Below are positions 34,015-39,970 of a stretch of 64,000 bases of DNA, one piece after another (position 1 is the stretch's first letter; every line of letters starts with the position of its first letter). Both the position numbers and the translations under genes were made by a program. Location: NCBI RefSeq assembly GCF_022414535.1, contig NZ_JADWYM010000002.1, forward strand, positions 270,304 to 334,303, read 5' to 3'. The notes below the pieces were generated by a model. The model did not search any database, was not told the origin of the DNA, and saw only the letters and a program-made list of their open reading frames with translations. This DNA comes from Streptomyces sp. MUM 2J (GTDB lineage Bacteria > Actinomycetota > Actinomycetes > Streptomycetales > Streptomycetaceae).

Positions 34015-34680
34015 TCAGGACGGCTGTGGTCCGCCCCCGAGGTGCTTGCCGAGCCGCCTGTCCAGGGCGAGGGACAACTCCGCGTCCACGACGCTGCGGG
34101 CCAGTGGGCGCAGGCGCTGCAGGTCCTCCTCCGGGCCGTGGCGCAGGATCAGGTCGGCGAAGAGTTCGGCGAGGGTGTCGGCGTGCTCGCGGACGCGGGC
34201 GCCCGCCGTGAGGACCTCCGCGAGCGGGATGCCCTCGCGGACCAGGGCGGAGGAGACGTCGAGCAGGCGGCGGCTGATGTGGACGATCTCGTCGCCGTCC
34301 GTGCCGAGGTAGCCGAGTTCCATGGCGGCGGCCAGGTTCTCGGGGGTGACCTCGCCCTCGAAGCGTGCGGCGAGTTCCTCGGGGGTGAGGCGGACCGGCT
34401 CCTCCTCGGTGGGGGGACCGACGCCGAGCAGGTCGGCGACGTCCCGGCCGTGGTCGAGGGCCTCGGCGAGTTCCGCGATGCCGCTGAGGGTGTGGCCGCG
34501 TTCGAGTAGCGCCGCGATGGTGCGCAGGCGGGCCAGGTGGTGGTCGTCGTACCAGGCGATGCGGCCCTGGCGGCGGGGTGGCGGGATCAGTTTGCGCTCG
34601 CGGTAGAAGCGCAGGGTGCGCACCGTGATGCCGGCCAGCTCCGCCAGCTCCTCCATGCGGTATTCACGCTTCTCTGCCAC
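34015..34680 (-). CDS. MerR family transcriptional regulator
   Basis: 221 aa. The N-terminal MerR winged helix (YRMEELAELAGITVRTLRFYRERKLIPPPRRQGRIAWYDD, 7-46) is followed by a dimerisation helix and a longer effector domain (about 85-210) of Leu/Glu-rich helices. There is no Cys metal site. GTG 34680. Divergent from the Baeyer-Villiger monooxygenase operon with 136 bp between starts, hence its probable controller. Confidence 0.88.
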   Translation of the reverse strand: MAEKREYRMEELAELAGITVRTLRFYRERKLIPPPRRQGRIAWYDDHHLARLRTIAALLERGHTLSGIAELAEALDHGRDVADLLGVGPPTEEEPVRLTPEELAARFEGEVTPENLAAAMELGYLGTDGDEIVHISRRLLDVSSALVREGIPLAEVLTAGARVREHADTLAELFADLILRHGPEEDLQRLRPLARSVVDAELSLALDRRLGKHLGGGPQPS

Positions 34681-34765
34681 ACCGGAAGCCTATGTTGTAC
34701 CGCGGGTGACTTTCCTCGCCCCGCCCCCTACCCATGAGTACGAGGCTCCTCTACCCTCCCCATTG

Positions 34766-34783
34766 TGCCAGTGTTCACTGGCA
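34766..34783. promoter_or_regulatory. palindromic operator upstream of the monooxygenase operon
   Basis: TGCCAGTG-TT-CACTGGCA, perfect 8-bp arms, 33 bp before the monooxygenase ATG. The form is more like a TetR-type site than the spacer-bound operators of MerR proteins, so a second regulator elsewhere is possible. Confidence 0.65.
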
Positions 34784-34816
34784 GGGTTTGGGTACGGGTG
34801 TGGGAGGGGCTTCGGC

Positions 34817-36478
34817 ATGGCTGAGCACGAGCACGTACGGGTGGCGGTGGTCGGGTCCGGATTCGGCGGGCTGGGAGCCGCCGTGCGACTACGGCGGGAG
34901 GGCATCACCGACTTCGCCGTCCTGGAGCGGGCGGGCAGCGTCGGCGGCACCTGGCGGGACAACAGCTACCCCGGTTGCGCCTGCGACGTACCCTCCCACC
35001 TGTACTCCTTCTCCTTCGCTCCCAACCCCGACTGGCCGCGCACCTTCTCCGGGCAGGAACACATCCGCGCCTACCTGGAGCGCGTCACCGACACCTTCGG
35101 GCTGCGCCCGCACATCCGCTTCGACTCCGAGGTGAAGCGGATGACCTGGGACGGCGAGCAACTGCGATGGGTCATCGAGACCACCGGCGGCAACCTCACC
35201 GCGGACGTCGTCGTCTCCGCCACCGGCCCGCTCTCCGACCCCAAGATCCCCGACATCCCCGGCCTCGACTCCTTCCCCGGCAAGGTCTTCCACTCCGCCC
35301 GCTGGGACCACGACCACGACCTCGCCGGCAAGCGCGTCGCGATGATCGGCACGGGCGCGTCCGCGATCCAGATCGTGCCGTCCATCCAGCCGGAGGTCGG
35401 CAGGCTGACCCTCTTCCAGCGCACCCCCGCCTGGGTCATGCCCCGCGTCGACCGCGCCATCGGCGGGTTCGAGCGCGGGCTGCACCGGCAGCTGCCGTTC
35501 ACCACCCAGCTGCGCCGCGGAGCGCTGTGGGGCCTGCGCGAGCTCCAGGTGCAGGCCTTCACCAAGCACCCCAACGAGCTCGGCTTCGTCGAGCGGATCG
35601 CCGAGCGCAACATGGCGCACGCCATCAAGGACCCCGTGCTGCGCGCAAAACTCACCCCGGACTACCGCATCGGCTGCAAGCGGATCCTCCTGTCGAGCAC
35701 CTACTACCCGGCGCTCGCGCAGCCCAACGTGGACGTCGTCGCGAGCGGGCTCAGCGAGGTCCGCGGGTCCACCGTCGTCGCCGCCGACGGCACGGAGACC
35801 GAGGTCGACGTGATCATCTTCGGTACCGGTTTCCACGTCACGGACATGCCGATCGCCGAGCGGGTCGTGGGCGCCGACGGCCGGACGCTCGCCGAGACCT
35901 GGACCGGCGGCATGGCGGCCCTGCGCGGCGCCTCCGCCGCCGGCTTCCCGAACTGGATGACCATCATCGGGCCCAACACCGGCCTCGGGAACTCCTCGAT
36001 GATCCTCATGATCGAGTCCCAGCTGAACTACCTCGCCGACTACATGCGCCAGCTGGACGTCCTCGGCGGCCGTGCCGCGCTCGACGCGCGCCCGAGCGCC
36101 GTGCACGCCTGGAACCGCCGGGTGCAGGAGCGCATGAAGCGGACGGTGTGGAACACGGGTGGCTGCACCAGCTGGTACCTCGACGCGAGCGGACGCAACA
36201 CCACCGTCTGGCCGGGGACGACCAGCGAGTTCCGGCGGGCCACGCGCCGCGTCGAACTCTCGGAGTACCAGGTGCTGCGCCCCTCCGACGGCCGCACGCC
36301 CGGGAAGACGACCCTCGGTGGAAGGGCGGCCGAAGGGGCCGGCTCCGACGGGGAGTCGCCCGGGGCGAGCGGAAGCGGCTCCCGGCGGAAGGCCCGCGCC
36401 CAGCAGGCTCCGGCGCGGGGGGCTGTCGGGGCCCCGGCGCGGCAGGCCTCCGGCCGCACCCGGGGGGCCGCCGGATGA
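34817..36478 (+). CDS. flavin-containing Baeyer-Villiger-type monooxygenase
   Basis: A 553-aa NADPH/FAD enzyme that inserts oxygen next to carbonyls or oxidises heteroatoms. The FAD Rossmann motif GSGFGG is at the N-terminus, with GGTWRDNSYPGCACD after it. The Baeyer-Villiger fingerprint FxGxxxHxxxW appears as FPGKVFHSARW, and the NADPH motif as GTGASAIQI. The C-terminal 60 residues are basic and low-complexity. It overlaps the hydrolase gene by ATGA. A monooxygenase-hydrolase-SDR set resembles the mycobacterial mymA operon. GGGAGGGG lies upstream of ATG 34817. Confidence 0.9.
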   Translation: MAEHEHVRVAVVGSGFGGLGAAVRLRREGITDFAVLERAGSVGGTWRDNSYPGCACDVPSHLYSFSFAPNPDWPRTFSGQEHIRAYLERVTDTFGLRPHIRFDSEVKRMTWDGEQLRWVIETTGGNLTADVVVSATGPLSDPKIPDIPGLDSFPGKVFHSARWDHDHDLAGKRVAMIGTGASAIQIVPSIQPEVGRLTLFQRTPAWVMPRVDRAIGGFERGLHRQLPFTTQLRRGALWGLRELQVQAFTKHPNELGFVERIAERNMAHAIKDPVLRAKLTPDYRIGCKRILLSSTYYPALAQPNVDVVASGLSEVRGSTVVAADGTETEVDVIIFGTGFHVTDMPIAERVVGADGRTLAETWTGGMAALRGASAAGFPNWMTIIGPNTGLGNSSMILMIESQLNYLADYMRQLDVLGGRAALDARPSAVHAWNRRVQERMKRTVWNTGGCTSWYLDASGRNTTVWPGTTSEFRRATRRVELSEYQVLRPSDGRTPGKTTLGGRAAEGAGSDGESPGASGSGSRRKARAQQAPARGAVGAPARQASGRTRGAAG

Positions 36479-37590
36479 GCCGTCTCGCCCACGTGACCTC
36501 CGGGCCCTATGCCCCGCCCGCGCCCGCGCGCGAGCTGACCGTCGTCTCCGCCGACGGCGCGCGGCTGCACGTCGAGATGCACGGCCCCGTCGACGACCCG
36601 GCCGCTCCCGCGGTCGTCCTCGCGCACGGGTGGACCTGCTCGACCGCGTTCTGGGCGGCGCAGATTCGCCTGCTGGCGGCCGACCACCGGGTCATCGCCT
36701 ACGACCAGCGCGGCCACGGACGCAGCCCGGCGAGCCCCGCGTGCAGCACCCGGGCCCTCGCCGACGACCTGGAGGCCGTGCTCTCGGCCACGCTCGCGCC
36801 CGGCGAGAAGGCGGTGATCGCCGGCCATTCCATGGGCGGCATGACGGTGATGGCAGCCTCGGCGCGCCGGACGTTCCGCGAGCACGCGGCGGCGGTTCTG
36901 CTGTGCAGCACCGGCAGTTCGCGTCTGGTCGCGCAGTCCACCGTCGTACCGATCCGGGCCGGGCGGACGCGGACCTGGCTGACCCGGCGCGTCCTCGGTT
37001 CCCGCGCCCCCCTCGGACCCGTCACGCCACTCGCCCGGCGCGTCCTCAAGTACGGGACGATGGGCCCGGGTTCGGCCCCGCTCATGGTGGAGGCGTGCGC
37101 GCGGATCGTGCACGCCTGCCCGCGCACGGTCCGCCACGCCTGGTCGCAGGTGCTGGCGCGGCTCGATCTCGACCACGGGGTGAGGGAGTTGCGGGTGCCG
37201 GTGGCGGTCGTCGTCGGCACCGCGGACCGGCTCACGCCGCCCGTGCACGCCCGGGCTCTGGCCGCCGAGCTGCCCCGGTGCACCGGGCTGACCGAGCTGC
37301 CCGGGCTCGGTCACATGACGCCGGTGGAGGCGCCGGACGCGGTCGGCGAGGCGATCCGCGAGCTGGTCGCGACCCACCTGGTGGCCGCGCGTGCCACGGA
37401 CGTCCGGGACACCGCCGGGCATGCGCACACCGGCCCCGCGGACACCGGCCCCGCGGACACCGGCCCCGCGGACACCGGTCACGCGGGCGTGCGGGACGCA
37501 GCGCAGGACACGCACGCCCGGGACGCGGGCGGACGACAGGAAGCGGCCGGCGCGCAGGTCGCCGGCGCACCGATCGAGGAGGGCGCATGA
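36475..37590 (+). CDS. alpha/beta hydrolase
   Basis: A 371-aa serine hydrolase with nucleophile elbow GHSMGG (Ser119). The oxyanion segment is LAHGWTCSTAFW, and AYDQRGHGRSP and the C-terminal GLGHMTPVE (catalytic His) follow. After about residue 305 the tail is repetitive, with four copies of a five-residue unit TGPAD or close variants encoded by a 15-bp tandem repeat. The likely role is hydrolysing the ester made by the upstream monooxygenase. Its stop overlapped the SDR start before the IS110 insertion. Confidence 0.88.
   Translation: MSRLAHVTSGPYAPPAPARELTVVSADGARLHVEMHGPVDDPAAPAVVLAHGWTCSTAFWAAQIRLLAADHRVIAYDQRGHGRSPASPACSTRALADDLEAVLSATLAPGEKAVIAGHSMGGMTVMAASARRTFREHAAAVLLCSTGSSRLVAQSTVVPIRAGRTRTWLTRRVLGSRAPLGPVTPLARRVLKYGTMGPGSAPLMVEACARIVHACPRTVRHAWSQVLARLDLDHGVRELRVPVAVVVGTADRLTPPVHARALAAELPRCTGLTELPGLGHMTPVEAPDAVGEAIRELVATHLVAARATDVRDTAGHAHTGPADTGPADTGPADTGHAGVRDAAQDTHARDAGGRQEAAGAQVAGAPIEEGA
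37431..37485 (+). repeat. 15-bp in-frame tandem repeat in hydrolase tail
   Basis: Unit ACCGGCCCCGCGGAC repeated about 3.5 times, encoding TGPAD repeats. The copies are nearly identical, suggesting recent slippage expansion. Confidence 0.75.
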
Positions 37591-37607
37591 GTTTCCTGAG
37601 TCGACCT

Positions 37608-38831
37608 CTAGGCCGCCAGAGGCTCGTCGGCGGGTGTGTTGATCTTGCTGTTGGCTTGGTGGATGGCGGGGTCGTAGCAGGTGCCGTCGCGCCAGCAGGC
37701 CCACATCACGCGGAGCCAGGCGCGGGCCAGGATGCGGACGGCGTGTGGGTGCCGCTTCTTGCGGGCCCGGGCGTCGTTGTAGGTCCTGGCGGCCCAGTCG
37801 CTTCCGTGGCGGCTGTTGTCCGCGAAGGTGGTCAGCGCGACGCGTGCGCGACGGTTGGTCGCGAAGCGGAAGGAGACCGTGCGGGACTTGCCCGAGGCAC
37901 GGGTGACGGGGACGACACCGGCTTCGGCGATGAGCTGTTCGCAGGTCTGGGCGCGTTCCAGGATCGGGCCGATCTCGCCGATGACCTGTCCGAGGCTGAC
38001 CGTGCCGATGCGGGGCATGGTGGCGCACAGCGGTGCGTAGGGGTGGGTTCGGGTGGCTTCGGCGATGGTCTTGTCCAGGGTGCGGATGGTCGCGCGTATG
38101 CCCTGCACGAGCTGGACCTGGACACGTACCAGCTGCTCGACGACGGCGTCACTGAGGCGGGAGGCGGCCTTCGGGGCGGCGCGCAGGCGCTCTATGAGGA
38201 CGCTGCCGGGCTTCTTGCCGGGGTAGCCGCGGCGCTTGCACCAGGCCTGAAGCCGTCCGGCGGTGAGCTTCGCGGCGGAGGCCGGGGTGGGATGACGCTC
38301 CAGGAACGCGAGAGCGATGTCGCTGTCCGGGTCGGCGAAGACCGCCTTGCCGCCGGGCCAGTGCCCGTCCAGCAACGCGGCGAGCTGGTTGACGGCGGCG
38401 ATGCGGGCCTCGATGTGGTCTGCCCGCTGCCGGGTCAGCGCCTGCAGACCGGGAGTGGCCTGCTCGGTCGGCTCCAGGCGGGACAGCAGGTGGCCGTCGG
38501 TGCGCAGGCAGTCGGCGAGCTTCATGCTGTCGCCGGCGTCCGTCTTGGCCTTCGAGGCGCCCCAGCGCGCCCGCATGGCGTGGAAGGCATTGGGGTGCAC
38601 CGGTACGACCGGGTGGCCGGCGGCCAGAAGCCGGTCGACGGCCAGGCCCCGGGTGGTTTCGATGGCAACGGGCAGGTCGGCCGGGTCGCCGTGCCTGCGC
38701 AAGCGGGCCAGGGTCTTGGCGAACCCTTCCTCGGTGCGGGCCAGTTCCCACCGGTCGATGCGCTTGCCGAAGGGGTCCATGACGGTCACGTCATGGGTTT
38801 CGGTCGCCCAGTCCCATCCGATGAACACGTG
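37608..38831 (-). CDS. IS110 family transposase (DEDD plus Tnp20 domains)
   Basis: A 407-aa recombinase. The N-terminal RuvC-like DEDD domain has Asp6 (FIGWDWATE), Glu57 (VAIETTRG), Asp97 and Asp100 (KTDAGDSMKLAD). The C-terminal transposase_20 domain (about 260-380) contains MPRIGTVSLGQVIGEIG and ASGKSRTVSFRF, expected to supply the catalytic Ser. Intact. The frame is open to GTG 38966 (452 aa), but family proteins begin a few residues before the first Asp, so GTG 38831 is preferred. Related enzymes use a bridge RNA from the non-coding end. Confidence 0.9.
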   Translation of the reverse strand, partial: HVFIGWDWATETHDVTVMDPFGKRIDRWELARTEEGFAKTLARLRRHGDPADLPVAIETTRGLAVDRLLAAGHPVVPVHPNAFHAMRARWGASKAKTDAGDSMKLADCLRTDGHLLSRLEPTEQATPGLQALTRQRADHIEARIAAVNQLAALLDGHWPGGKAVFADPDSDIALAFLERHPTPASAAKLTAGRLQAWCKRRGYPGKKPGSVLIERLRAAPKAASRLSDAVVEQLVRVQVQLVQGIRATIRTLDKTIAEATRTHPYAPLCATMPRIGTVSLGQVIGEIGPILERAQTCEQLIAEAGVVPVTRASGKSRTVSFRFATNRRARVALTTFADNSRHGSDWAARTYNDARARKKRHPHAVRILARAWLRVMWACWRDGTCYDPAIHQANSKINTPADEPLAA

Positions 38832-38898
38832 CGTCGTACTCCACTGCCGTTCCAGGAGCACCTGCCCGGTGGTGAGGTCGTCTGCCGGGAGCTCACTA

Positions 38899-39048
38899 AT
38901 CGGCCCTCTGCGGGGCGTGTCCCTGAAGCCGATCAGACGGCCTCGGCCCGGCAGGGCTGGCGTCACTCATGCAGGCCGTCGAACGGCACGCAAGACAGGC
39001 CGTGCACCCGCCGGGACCGAGAGGTCACAACCCTACCCGTGAGGGCTG
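38899..39048 (-). ncRNA. candidate bridge RNA of the IS110 element
   Basis: Read along the minus strand the non-coding end has three successive stem-loops: 39048-39028 (CAGCCCT/AGGGTTG), 38980-38936 (GACGGCCT/AGGCCGTC) and 38933-38899 (ATCGGC/GCCGAT). This is the order 5' hairpin, target loop, donor loop known for IS621. The middle loop contains GCATGAG and CCCTGC, which match the two sides of the real insertion site. No promoter or expression evidence. Confidence 0.45.
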
Positions 39049-39067
39049 CAGAAGGGATGGTCCTCTA

Positions 39068-39970
39068 ATGAGCAGGGTCAGCCTGGAGGGACAGGTCGCG
39101 GTCGTCACCGGCGCGGCGCGGGGCGTCGGCGAGCTGCTCGCCCGCAAGCTCTCCGCGCGCGGCGCGACGGTCGCCCTGGTCGGCCTGGAGCCGGACGCCC
39201 TCAAGCAGGTCGCCGAGCGGCTGCACGGCGAGAGCGGCCACTGGCACGCGGACGTCACCGACCACGAGGCGATGACGCGGGTGGCGCAGGAGGTCAAGGA
39301 GCGGTTCGGGAAGGTCGACGTCGTCGTCGCCAACGCCGGTGTCGCCAGCGGTGGGCCCTTCGTCGACTCCGACCCGCGGGCCTGGCGACGGGTGATCGAG
39401 GTCAACCTCGTCGGGTCGGCGGTGACGGCCCGCGCGTTCCTGCCGGTGCTGATGGAGAGCCGCGGTTACCTGCTGCAGATCGCCTCCCTCGCCGCGATCA
39501 CGCCGGCGCCGATGATGACCGCGTACTGCGCGTCCAAGTCGGGCGTGGAGGCGTACGCGCACAGTCTGCGCGCCGAGGTCGGTCACAGGGGCGTGCGGGT
39601 CGGCGTCGGCTACCTGTCGTGGACCGACACCGACATGGTGCGTGGGGCCGACCAGGACGACGTCATGCGGGAACTCCGGCAGCGACTGCCGTGGCCGTCG
39701 AACAAGACGTACCCGCTGGGACCCGCGGTCGACCGGATCGTCGCCGGGATCGAGCGGCGGTCCAGCCATGTCTACGGCCAGTGGTGGCTGCGCGGGATGC
39801 AGGGCGTGCGCGGGTACCTGCCGGGGCTCATCGGCACCGTCGGGCAGCGTGAGATGCGGCGCTTCGCGGACCGGTTGGAGGGCATGCGGACCGGGCTGGT
39901 GGGCGCGGGCGGAGCTGCCGACGAGCGGGAGCGGACCCCGGCCGCGGGGGCTGCTACGGAGCGTGAGTGA
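39068..39970 (+). CDS. short-chain dehydrogenase/reductase
   Basis: A 300-aa classical SDR: cofactor motif TGAARGVG (14-21), NAG at 89-91, catalytic Ser140, Tyr153 and Lys157 (YCASK). The C-terminal extension (about 235-300), with VYGQWWLRGMQGVRGYLPGLIG, resembles SDRs of mymA-type operons. Before the IS110 insertion its ATG overlapped the hydrolase stop. The IS end now provides GAAGG about 12 nt upstream, so translation may continue. Likely oxidises or reduces the alcohol/ketone handled by the monooxygenase pathway. Confidence 0.88.
   Translation: MSRVSLEGQVAVVTGAARGVGELLARKLSARGATVALVGLEPDALKQVAERLHGESGHWHADVTDHEAMTRVAQEVKERFGKVDVVVANAGVASGGPFVDSDPRAWRRVIEVNLVGSAVTARAFLPVLMESRGYLLQIASLAAITPAPMMTAYCASKSGVEAYAHSLRAEVGHRGVRVGVGYLSWTDTDMVRGADQDDVMRELRQRLPWPSNKTYPLGPAVDRIVAGIERRSSHVYGQWWLRGMQGVRGYLPGLIGTVGQREMRRFADRLEGMRTGLVGAGGAADERERTPAAGAATERE

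What the first reader, a model, noticed from the sequence alone, without database searches (positions are those of the whole stretch)
38899..39067. Candidate bridge RNA whose loop matches the element's own insertion site
The IS110 non-coding end folds into three consecutive hairpins in the bridge-RNA order. The middle one (stem 38936-38943/38973-38980) carries GCATGAG and CCCTGC. The reconstructed target reads GCATGAGCAGGG, so one segment equals the left half and the other is the complement of the right half. Caveat: in IS621 the 5' guide corresponds to the half next to the transposase 5' end, but here it corresponds to the other side. The donor loop shows only weak matches.
Basis: partly seen in the sequence, partly recalled or inferred. 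Interest (0 to 1): 0.8.

Follow-up and report, generated by a model that had tools for sequence, protein, structure and literature searches.

The report
Jumping gene's guide RNA, loop redrawn

Summary
Real, and partly as claimed, but ordinary in layout. The window holds an IS110-type element (transposase 37608-38828, minus strand) with a non-coding left end (LE). Its insertion site is secure: nine of nine opened relatives cross the junction without a gap, seven with the full GCATGAGCAGGG. GCATGAG (38966-38972) is a target guide: 31 of 34 distinct sites match their copy's guide at all seven positions, and guide and target change together. The left guide, TGTCTTGC (38990-38997), sits in the opposite strand of that hairpin's loop and tracks the left target over 42 sites. 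A scan of the whole LE ranks these two segments first. Donor guides agree with the element's ends only roughly and by eye. RNA expression is untested. The family likely aims at start codons, often where a stop and a start overlap (A/GTGA), leaving both genes readable (13 of 29 sites, against 2 of 81 background motifs).

The parts
37592..39072 (-). IS110-type insertion element, counted with the CT core on the LE side (the shared core makes the ends ambiguous by 2 to 5 bases)
   Evidence: Alignment of related copies ends at the same two points; uninterrupted site in relatives
37608..38828 (-). Transposase gene, GTG start, 406 aa, open throughout
   Evidence: PF01548 103.8 bits and PF02371 38.4 bits (given with one codon more at the start); NF033542 IS110 family RNA-guided transposase 156.9 bits, cut-off 140
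39028..39048 (-). 5' hairpin CAGCCCT/AGGGTTG of the predicted bridge RNA
   Evidence: Minimum free energy fold; coordinates
38942..39021 (-). Target-binding hairpin: long stem 38999-39021 with 38942-38961, apical hairpin 38975-38987
38990..38997 (-). Left target guide (LTG) TGTCTTGC; its last letter is the core C
   Evidence: Tracks the left target over 42 distinct sites; first in a scan of the whole LE
38966..38972 (-). Right target guide (RTG) GCATGAG; the last AG pairs with the CT core
   Evidence: 31 of 34 sites match at all seven positions; first in a scan of the whole LE
38951..38956 (-).
   Evidence: p = 0.11 against the left target; stem counts
38879..38939 (-). Donor-binding hairpin, outer stem CGTCTG-TCGG/CCGG-CAGACG
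   Evidence: 97.8% of cells paired in 18 homologues, but no two-sided change
38919..38927 (-). Predicted left donor guide TTCAGGGAC, resembling the right end CTCAGGAAAC
   Evidence: Read by eye; partial match
38892..38899 (-). Predicted right donor guide TTAGTGAG (TTAATGAG in most copies), complementary with wobble to the left end CTCATTAG
   Evidence: CAGTGAG where the left end is CTCACTGG; by eye
39068..39079 (+). Left half of the target as read along the transposase: ATGAG (supplied by the element end) plus CAGGGTC; start of the short-chain dehydrogenase gene
37585..37591 (+). Right half of the target, GCATGAG; holds the TGA stop of the upstream hydrolase-like gene

Best explanation
The left end of this IS110-type element likely encodes a bridge RNA whose target loop would pair TGTCTTGC with the left half and GCATGAG with the right half of the insertion site, and so is predicted to steer the transposase to start codons of the form GCATGAGC. 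Shown here: the element, its site, the empty site in relatives, and copy-by-copy tracking of both target guides. Inferred: that the RNA is transcribed on the minus strand, binds the transposase and bridges target and donor as in IS621. Predicted from few changes read by eye: that the second loop pairs with the element's own ends (TTCAGGGAC with the right end, TTAGTGAG with the left end) around the shared CT core. The guide order is the IS621 order. Because the element's left end finishes in ATGAG, insertion hands the downstream gene an ATG (sequence) and would leave it translatable, while the upstream gene keeps its TGA stop.
For: Family: PF01548, PF02371, NF033542 above cut-off. Site: 9 of 9 opened relatives cross the junction without a gap. 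LTG against left target, 42 distinct sites: 166 matches over seven positions, null mean 119.9, null maximum 145 in 20,000 permutations; one site per distinct LTG (16): 64 against 45.1, p = 5e-5. RTG against right target, 34 sites: 184 against 138.2, null maximum 163; one site per distinct RTG (9): 49 against 36.4, p = 1.5e-4. A scan of the whole LE puts LTG E79-82 first (excess 34.4; best unrelated segment 9.0; 38 sites) and RTG E101-104 first (45.3; next off-diagonal 15.2; 34 sites). Different guides sit with different targets: CTCATGC, CTCACAG, CTCATGT, CTCATCG, CTCATAC, CTCACTT. In four distant relatives (37.0 to 54.2% identical transposases) the seven letters CT plus five match 7, 7, 7 and 6 of 7 (L085, L087, L089, L088). 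Structure: 96.3% of cells paired and 9 cells with two-sided change, 0 of 500 shuffles as high for either.
Against: No RNA data. Only 2 pairs carry two-sided changes, and 220 of 500 shuffles reach that number. Fold energy is unremarkable (z -1.59), and in that fold the two target guides partly pair with each other. Three of 34 right targets miss at position +5 (L005, L009, L064) and 12 of 42 left targets miss somewhere at -3 to -1, the window's own copy and its sister L002 among them; the window's LTG pairs with its left target by four Watson-Crick and three wobble pairs of eight. Most of the ATGAG match is shared with the element end itself; on the right only positions +3 to +5 are informative. 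Donor guides match imperfectly. Copies are related, so sites are not fully independent, although the one-per-guide tests answer part of that.
Confidence: 0.92

Rival explanations
1. One reading: a bridge RNA with the middle hairpin 38936-38980 and guides GCATGAG then CCCTGC, so a reversed, IS1111-like order in an element with an upstream non-coding region.
For: In the window copy alone both segments match, and the stem can form in most homologues (87.3% of cells).
Against: CCCYG does not track the left target (p = 0.11, 38 sites); no two-sided change in the stem; forced energy is worse in 16 of 18 homologues; the other segment does track.
Confidence: 0.04
2. The transposase itself reads the target, and the matches in the LE reflect only the ATGAG shared by core and element end.
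For: CTCA follows the junction in 34 of 34 right sites and begins the LE of every copy read except L018, which has CCCA; the left target is G at -1 in 41 of 42 sites.
Against: Positions +3 to +5 of the right target and -3, -2 of the left target vary and follow the LE letters (p = 5e-5 at each), and those letters lie outside the coding region.
Confidence: 0.02
3. The tracking is inheritance only: related copies share guide class and target class without a causal link.
For: Copies are related by descent and the guides fall into few classes (9 RTG, 16 LTG).
Against: Sites are counted once per distinct flank, so targets are not simply inherited; tests with one site per distinct guide still give p = 5e-5 and 1.5e-4.
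Confidence: 0.02

Closest known systems
IS621 bridge RNA (IS110 group)
   Same: RNA from the end upstream of the transposase gene; 5' hairpin, target loop, donor loop; LTG pairs with the left bottom strand, RTG with the right top strand; CT core (PMC11208160: sections 6, 7, 12, part 1 of 43 and found passages seen; no figures).
   Different: Here about 4 left letters and, on the right, 5 letters plus the core track the target, against a nine-base LTG and four-base RTG (7 when extended) in IS621; transposase 406 aa, against 315-330 aa for the IS621 branch (PMC11187229, section 6).
ISEc21 seekRNA (IS110 family)
   Same: Upstream non-coding region; bottom-strand match 5' of the top-strand match (PMC11187229, section 12).
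   Different: Different target; transposase 358 aa (section 6).
IS900 of Mycobacterium avium subsp. paratuberculosis
   Same: Its target motif CATGNNNNNNTCTCCTT (PMC8141618, two passages seen) has the shape of the right targets here, CATG followed some bases on by CCTCC-like letters. That IS900 is in the long-transposase IS110 branch is recalled.
   Different: No IS900 sequence or guide was examined here.
IS1111 group
   Same: DEDD transposase and a guide RNA.
   Different: There the RNA lies downstream of the gene and the guide order is reversed (PMC11187229, abstract and section 12); neither holds here.

Membership tests
IS110 group with bridge RNA | DEDD_Tnp_IS110 and Transposase_20 domains | tested here: met
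   103.8 and 38.4 bits, both above gathering; NF033542 156.9 against 140
[quoted passage not shown]
   38829-39072 upstream, about 16 bases downstream
IS110 group with bridge RNA | Target loop with LTG equal to the left target and RTG complementary to the right target's top strand | tested here: met
IS110 group with bridge RNA | Donor loop with LDG and RDG matching the element's ends | tested here: inconclusive
   Partial matches read by eye; both change between near and distant copies in the expected direction; no statistical test
IS110 group with bridge RNA | Shared CT dinucleotide core at both junctions | tested here: met
   CT at both junctions; uninterrupted sites in 9 of 9 opened relatives
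IS110 group with bridge RNA | RNA expressed and bound by the transposase | not testable with these tools
   No RNA data held
IS1111 group | Downstream non-coding region and reversed guide order | tested here: not met
IS1111 group | Subterminal inverted repeats of 7-17 bp | tested here: inconclusive
   One 7-base inverted repeat within the outer 60 bases of each end, reached by 17% of shuffles

The most novel reading that the evidence does not exclude
A bridge-RNA lineage of actinobacteria whose guides are naturally programmed to overlapping stop-start codons (A/GTGAGC): the RTG writes start and stop codon together, the element end carries ATGAG to rebuild the start, and small guide changes move the family between ATG and GTG starts, so that insertions split operons exactly between two intact genes.
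Probability: 0.55. Interest if true: 0.6.

Novelty: new member of a known kind. Interest (0 to 1): 0.42.

Why it matters
It gives a natural data set (16 left and 9 right guide sequences with their sites) for bridge RNAs of a long-transposase IS110 lineage in high-GC actinobacteria. It also removes an apparent exception to the reported guide-order rule. If the start-codon reading holds, it shows how such elements can spread between genes without breaking them, which would be useful to anyone who wants gene-sparing insertion in Streptomyces.

Tried and rejected
The idea that this element combines an upstream RNA with the reversed IS1111 guide order was my own working view after (first notebook entry); I dropped it when the fold showed the other strand of the loop. 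Rfam gave no match in 37500-39200 at E up to 1. A sequence search of solved structures gave none at E up to 0.001. No phage record matched the LE at E up to 1e-5. An open-frame count alone could not show start-codon targeting: at 100 codons the ATG frame is open in 33 of 44 sites and the +2 frame in 32 of 44; composition by codon position was used instead. A TTGAC-like hexamer in the right end and GACCAT in the left end could form a promoter in the circle; only the right-end hexamers were counted. Fetched but not analysed further: L096-L099 (Variovorax, Mesorhizobium, Nonomuraea), and L100.

Rows left out of the guide tests: 12 loci with a right end but no LE (L010, L011, L015, L055, L058, L059, L061-L063, L068, L073, L076), L022 and L075 (LE cut short), and copies whose site repeats another (same 20 flanking bases); L040-L044 had only three left-flank letters, so they count on the right side only (all five read GTG). 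L020, whose LE is broken beyond the RTG, is in the left test. L012, L019, L021 and L023-L032 gave no element end. L013 and L020 were left out of alignment A1.

Full report
What is there. The window lies in a 7.3 Mb genome whose genus is probably Streptomyces (inference): the second contig of G351, called same genus, has the length (967,890) and an element position of plasmid NZ_CP030772.1 of Streptomyces sp. YIM 121038. An open transposase gene lies at 37608-38828 on the minus strand with both IS110 domains and the NCBIfam IS110 RNA-guided transposase model above cut-off. Read along the transposase, the left junction is CCCTG-CT-CATTAGAGGACC and the right junction TCAGGAAA-CT-CATGC.

The site. 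Joining the two flanks and searching 150 relatives gave contiguous matches; the nine that I opened (L102-L110) all cross the junction without a gap. Seven read GCATGAGCAGGG, L105 reads GCATGAGCAAGG, L107 ACATGAGCAGGG. A second copy in the same genome (G000:C76, L002) has lost about 700 bases inside the transposase gene, keeps a nearly identical LE, and sits at GCATGAGCACG.

The redrawn RNA. Its internal loop has TGTCTTGC on the 5' strand and CTGCATGAG on the 3' strand. On an alignment of 18 distinct LEs (A1) 96.3% of cells pair; two pairs carry two-sided changes (columns 26-70, six sequences; 44-50, three sequences), 9 such cells, reached by 0 of 500 shuffles, although the number of such pairs is reached by 220 of 500. 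Forcing each structure favours the redrawn one in 16 of 18; L014 and L018 go the other way. Fold energy by itself is not unusual.

Guides track targets. From every locus with a readable LE and flank, duplicates removed, 42 left and 34 right sites remained (rows left out are listed under Tried and rejected). Left, positions -7 to -1: 5, 18, 13, 18, 34, 36, 42 of 42, expected 5.8, 13.7, 10.0, 11.6, 17.3, 21.4, 40.0. Right, positions +1 to +7: 34, 34, 34, 34, 31, 1, 16 of 34, expected 34, 34, 21.8, 16.4, 14.7, 1.3, 16.0. So about four left letters and five right letters plus the core matter, and +6, +7 do not. With one site per distinct guide the totals were 64 against 45.1 (16 LTG, p = 5e-5) and 49 against 36.4 (9 RTG, p = 1.5e-4). 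A scan of the whole LE in both orientations, without being told where to look, ranked E79-82 (same strand) first for the left target (38 sites) and E101-104 (complement) first for the right target (34 sites); E position p is window 39073-p. All letters match in 31 of 34 right sites (CT plus five), in 30 of 42 left sites at -3 to -1 and in 36 of 42 at -2 to -1. The window's own left guide is one of the imperfect ones.

Further away. An RNA model of the LE (R1) matched 6 of 394 genomes of the class at E up to 1e-4, one being the window's own. Of the five others, three gave a right end to compare. Over nine letters the RTG meets the right target at 9 of 9 in L087, 8 of 9 in L085 and 7 of 9 in L088; in L089, found by DNA and not by the model, 7 of 9. 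Over CT plus five letters these are 7, 7, 6 and 7 of 7. L084 has only the first part of a transposase match and no right end was read; L086 gave no readable ends. In L085, L087 and L088 the left end is CTCACTGG and the right donor guide CAGTGAG, where most near copies have CTCATTAG and TTAATGAG; the left donor guide reads ACAGGGC and the right end ACAGGGC (L085, L088; ACAACGC in L087), against TCAGGGA with TCAGGGA or TCAGGAA in near copies. These donor readings are by eye; the window's own right donor guide TTAGTGAG fits its left end only with wobbles.

What it aims at. Read on the other strand, the target is a start codon: ATG in 29 and GTG in 14 of 43 distinct right sites. On the LE side, composition by codon position peaks at position 3 of the frame that begins at the LE-supplied ATG in 36 of 44 sites; on the other side it peaks in 32 of 43 sites in the phase of a gene ending at the overlapping TGA. 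A Shine-Dalgarno-like motif lies within 16 bases upstream in 21 of 43, against 6, 7 and 13 of 43 in windows further up. In the five plasmid loci with a near copy and annotation (L090-L093, L095; L090 and L091 share one site) the annotated gene begins at the ATG of the element end; a sixth, L094, has no annotation there. In the window the upstream hydrolase-like gene keeps its TGA and the dehydrogenase gene its ATG. Requiring an open, gene-like frame of 100 codons on both sides, 13 of 29 sites pass (21 on the downstream side, 16 on the upstream side), against 2 of 81 A/GTGAGC motifs in the window outside the element; tighter motifs gave 0 of 2 and 0 of 32. So 16 of 29 sites fail the joint test. 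Whether the pattern is the guide's choice or the survival of harmless insertions cannot be told here.

Literature. In PMC11208160 I saw the outline, sections 6, 7, 12, part 1 of 43 and found passages; in PMC11187229 the outline, sections 6, 12, 13 and found passages; in PMC8141618 two passages; in PMC12500396 and PMC3706429 found passages only. PMC12500396 notes an IS110 element with an upstream seekRNA region in the actinobacterium Kocuria; the passages seen give no guide or target. PMC3706429 describes an IS110-like insertion in phage Omega with an apparent five-base duplication, which may be the same kind of shared end as ATGAG here (my inference). The listings show no title on bridge RNAs of this lineage or on start-codon targeting by such a guide; only open-licence papers are held and most listed papers were not opened.

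Verdict.

Noticed in passing
L002 1503-2268 (G000:C76): A second copy in the same genome lacks about 700 bases inside the transposase gene but keeps both ends and a nearly identical LE; it sits at its own GCATGAGC site and could probably be moved only in trans.
   Followed up: partly
37590-37605 and 39057-39062, as they would lie side by side in the circle: The right end would give a TTGACT-like hexamer (GTCGAC in this copy; GTTGAC in 17 of 21 distinct right ends) and the left end GACCAT 17 bases on: a possible junction promoter.
   Followed up: partly
34616-39970: A flavin monooxygenase-like gene, a hydrolase-like gene and a short-chain dehydrogenase gene in a row; the element splits the last two exactly at their stop-start overlap.
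   Followed up: partly
about 37430-37480: Three near-identical 15-base repeats (ccccgcggacaccgg) in the 3' part of the hydrolase-like gene, seen in the sequence.
   Followed up: no
L009/L067 (G090), L013/L071 (G261), L064: Other internally deleted copies that keep the LE and the right end; some carry guides of their own.
   Followed up: partly
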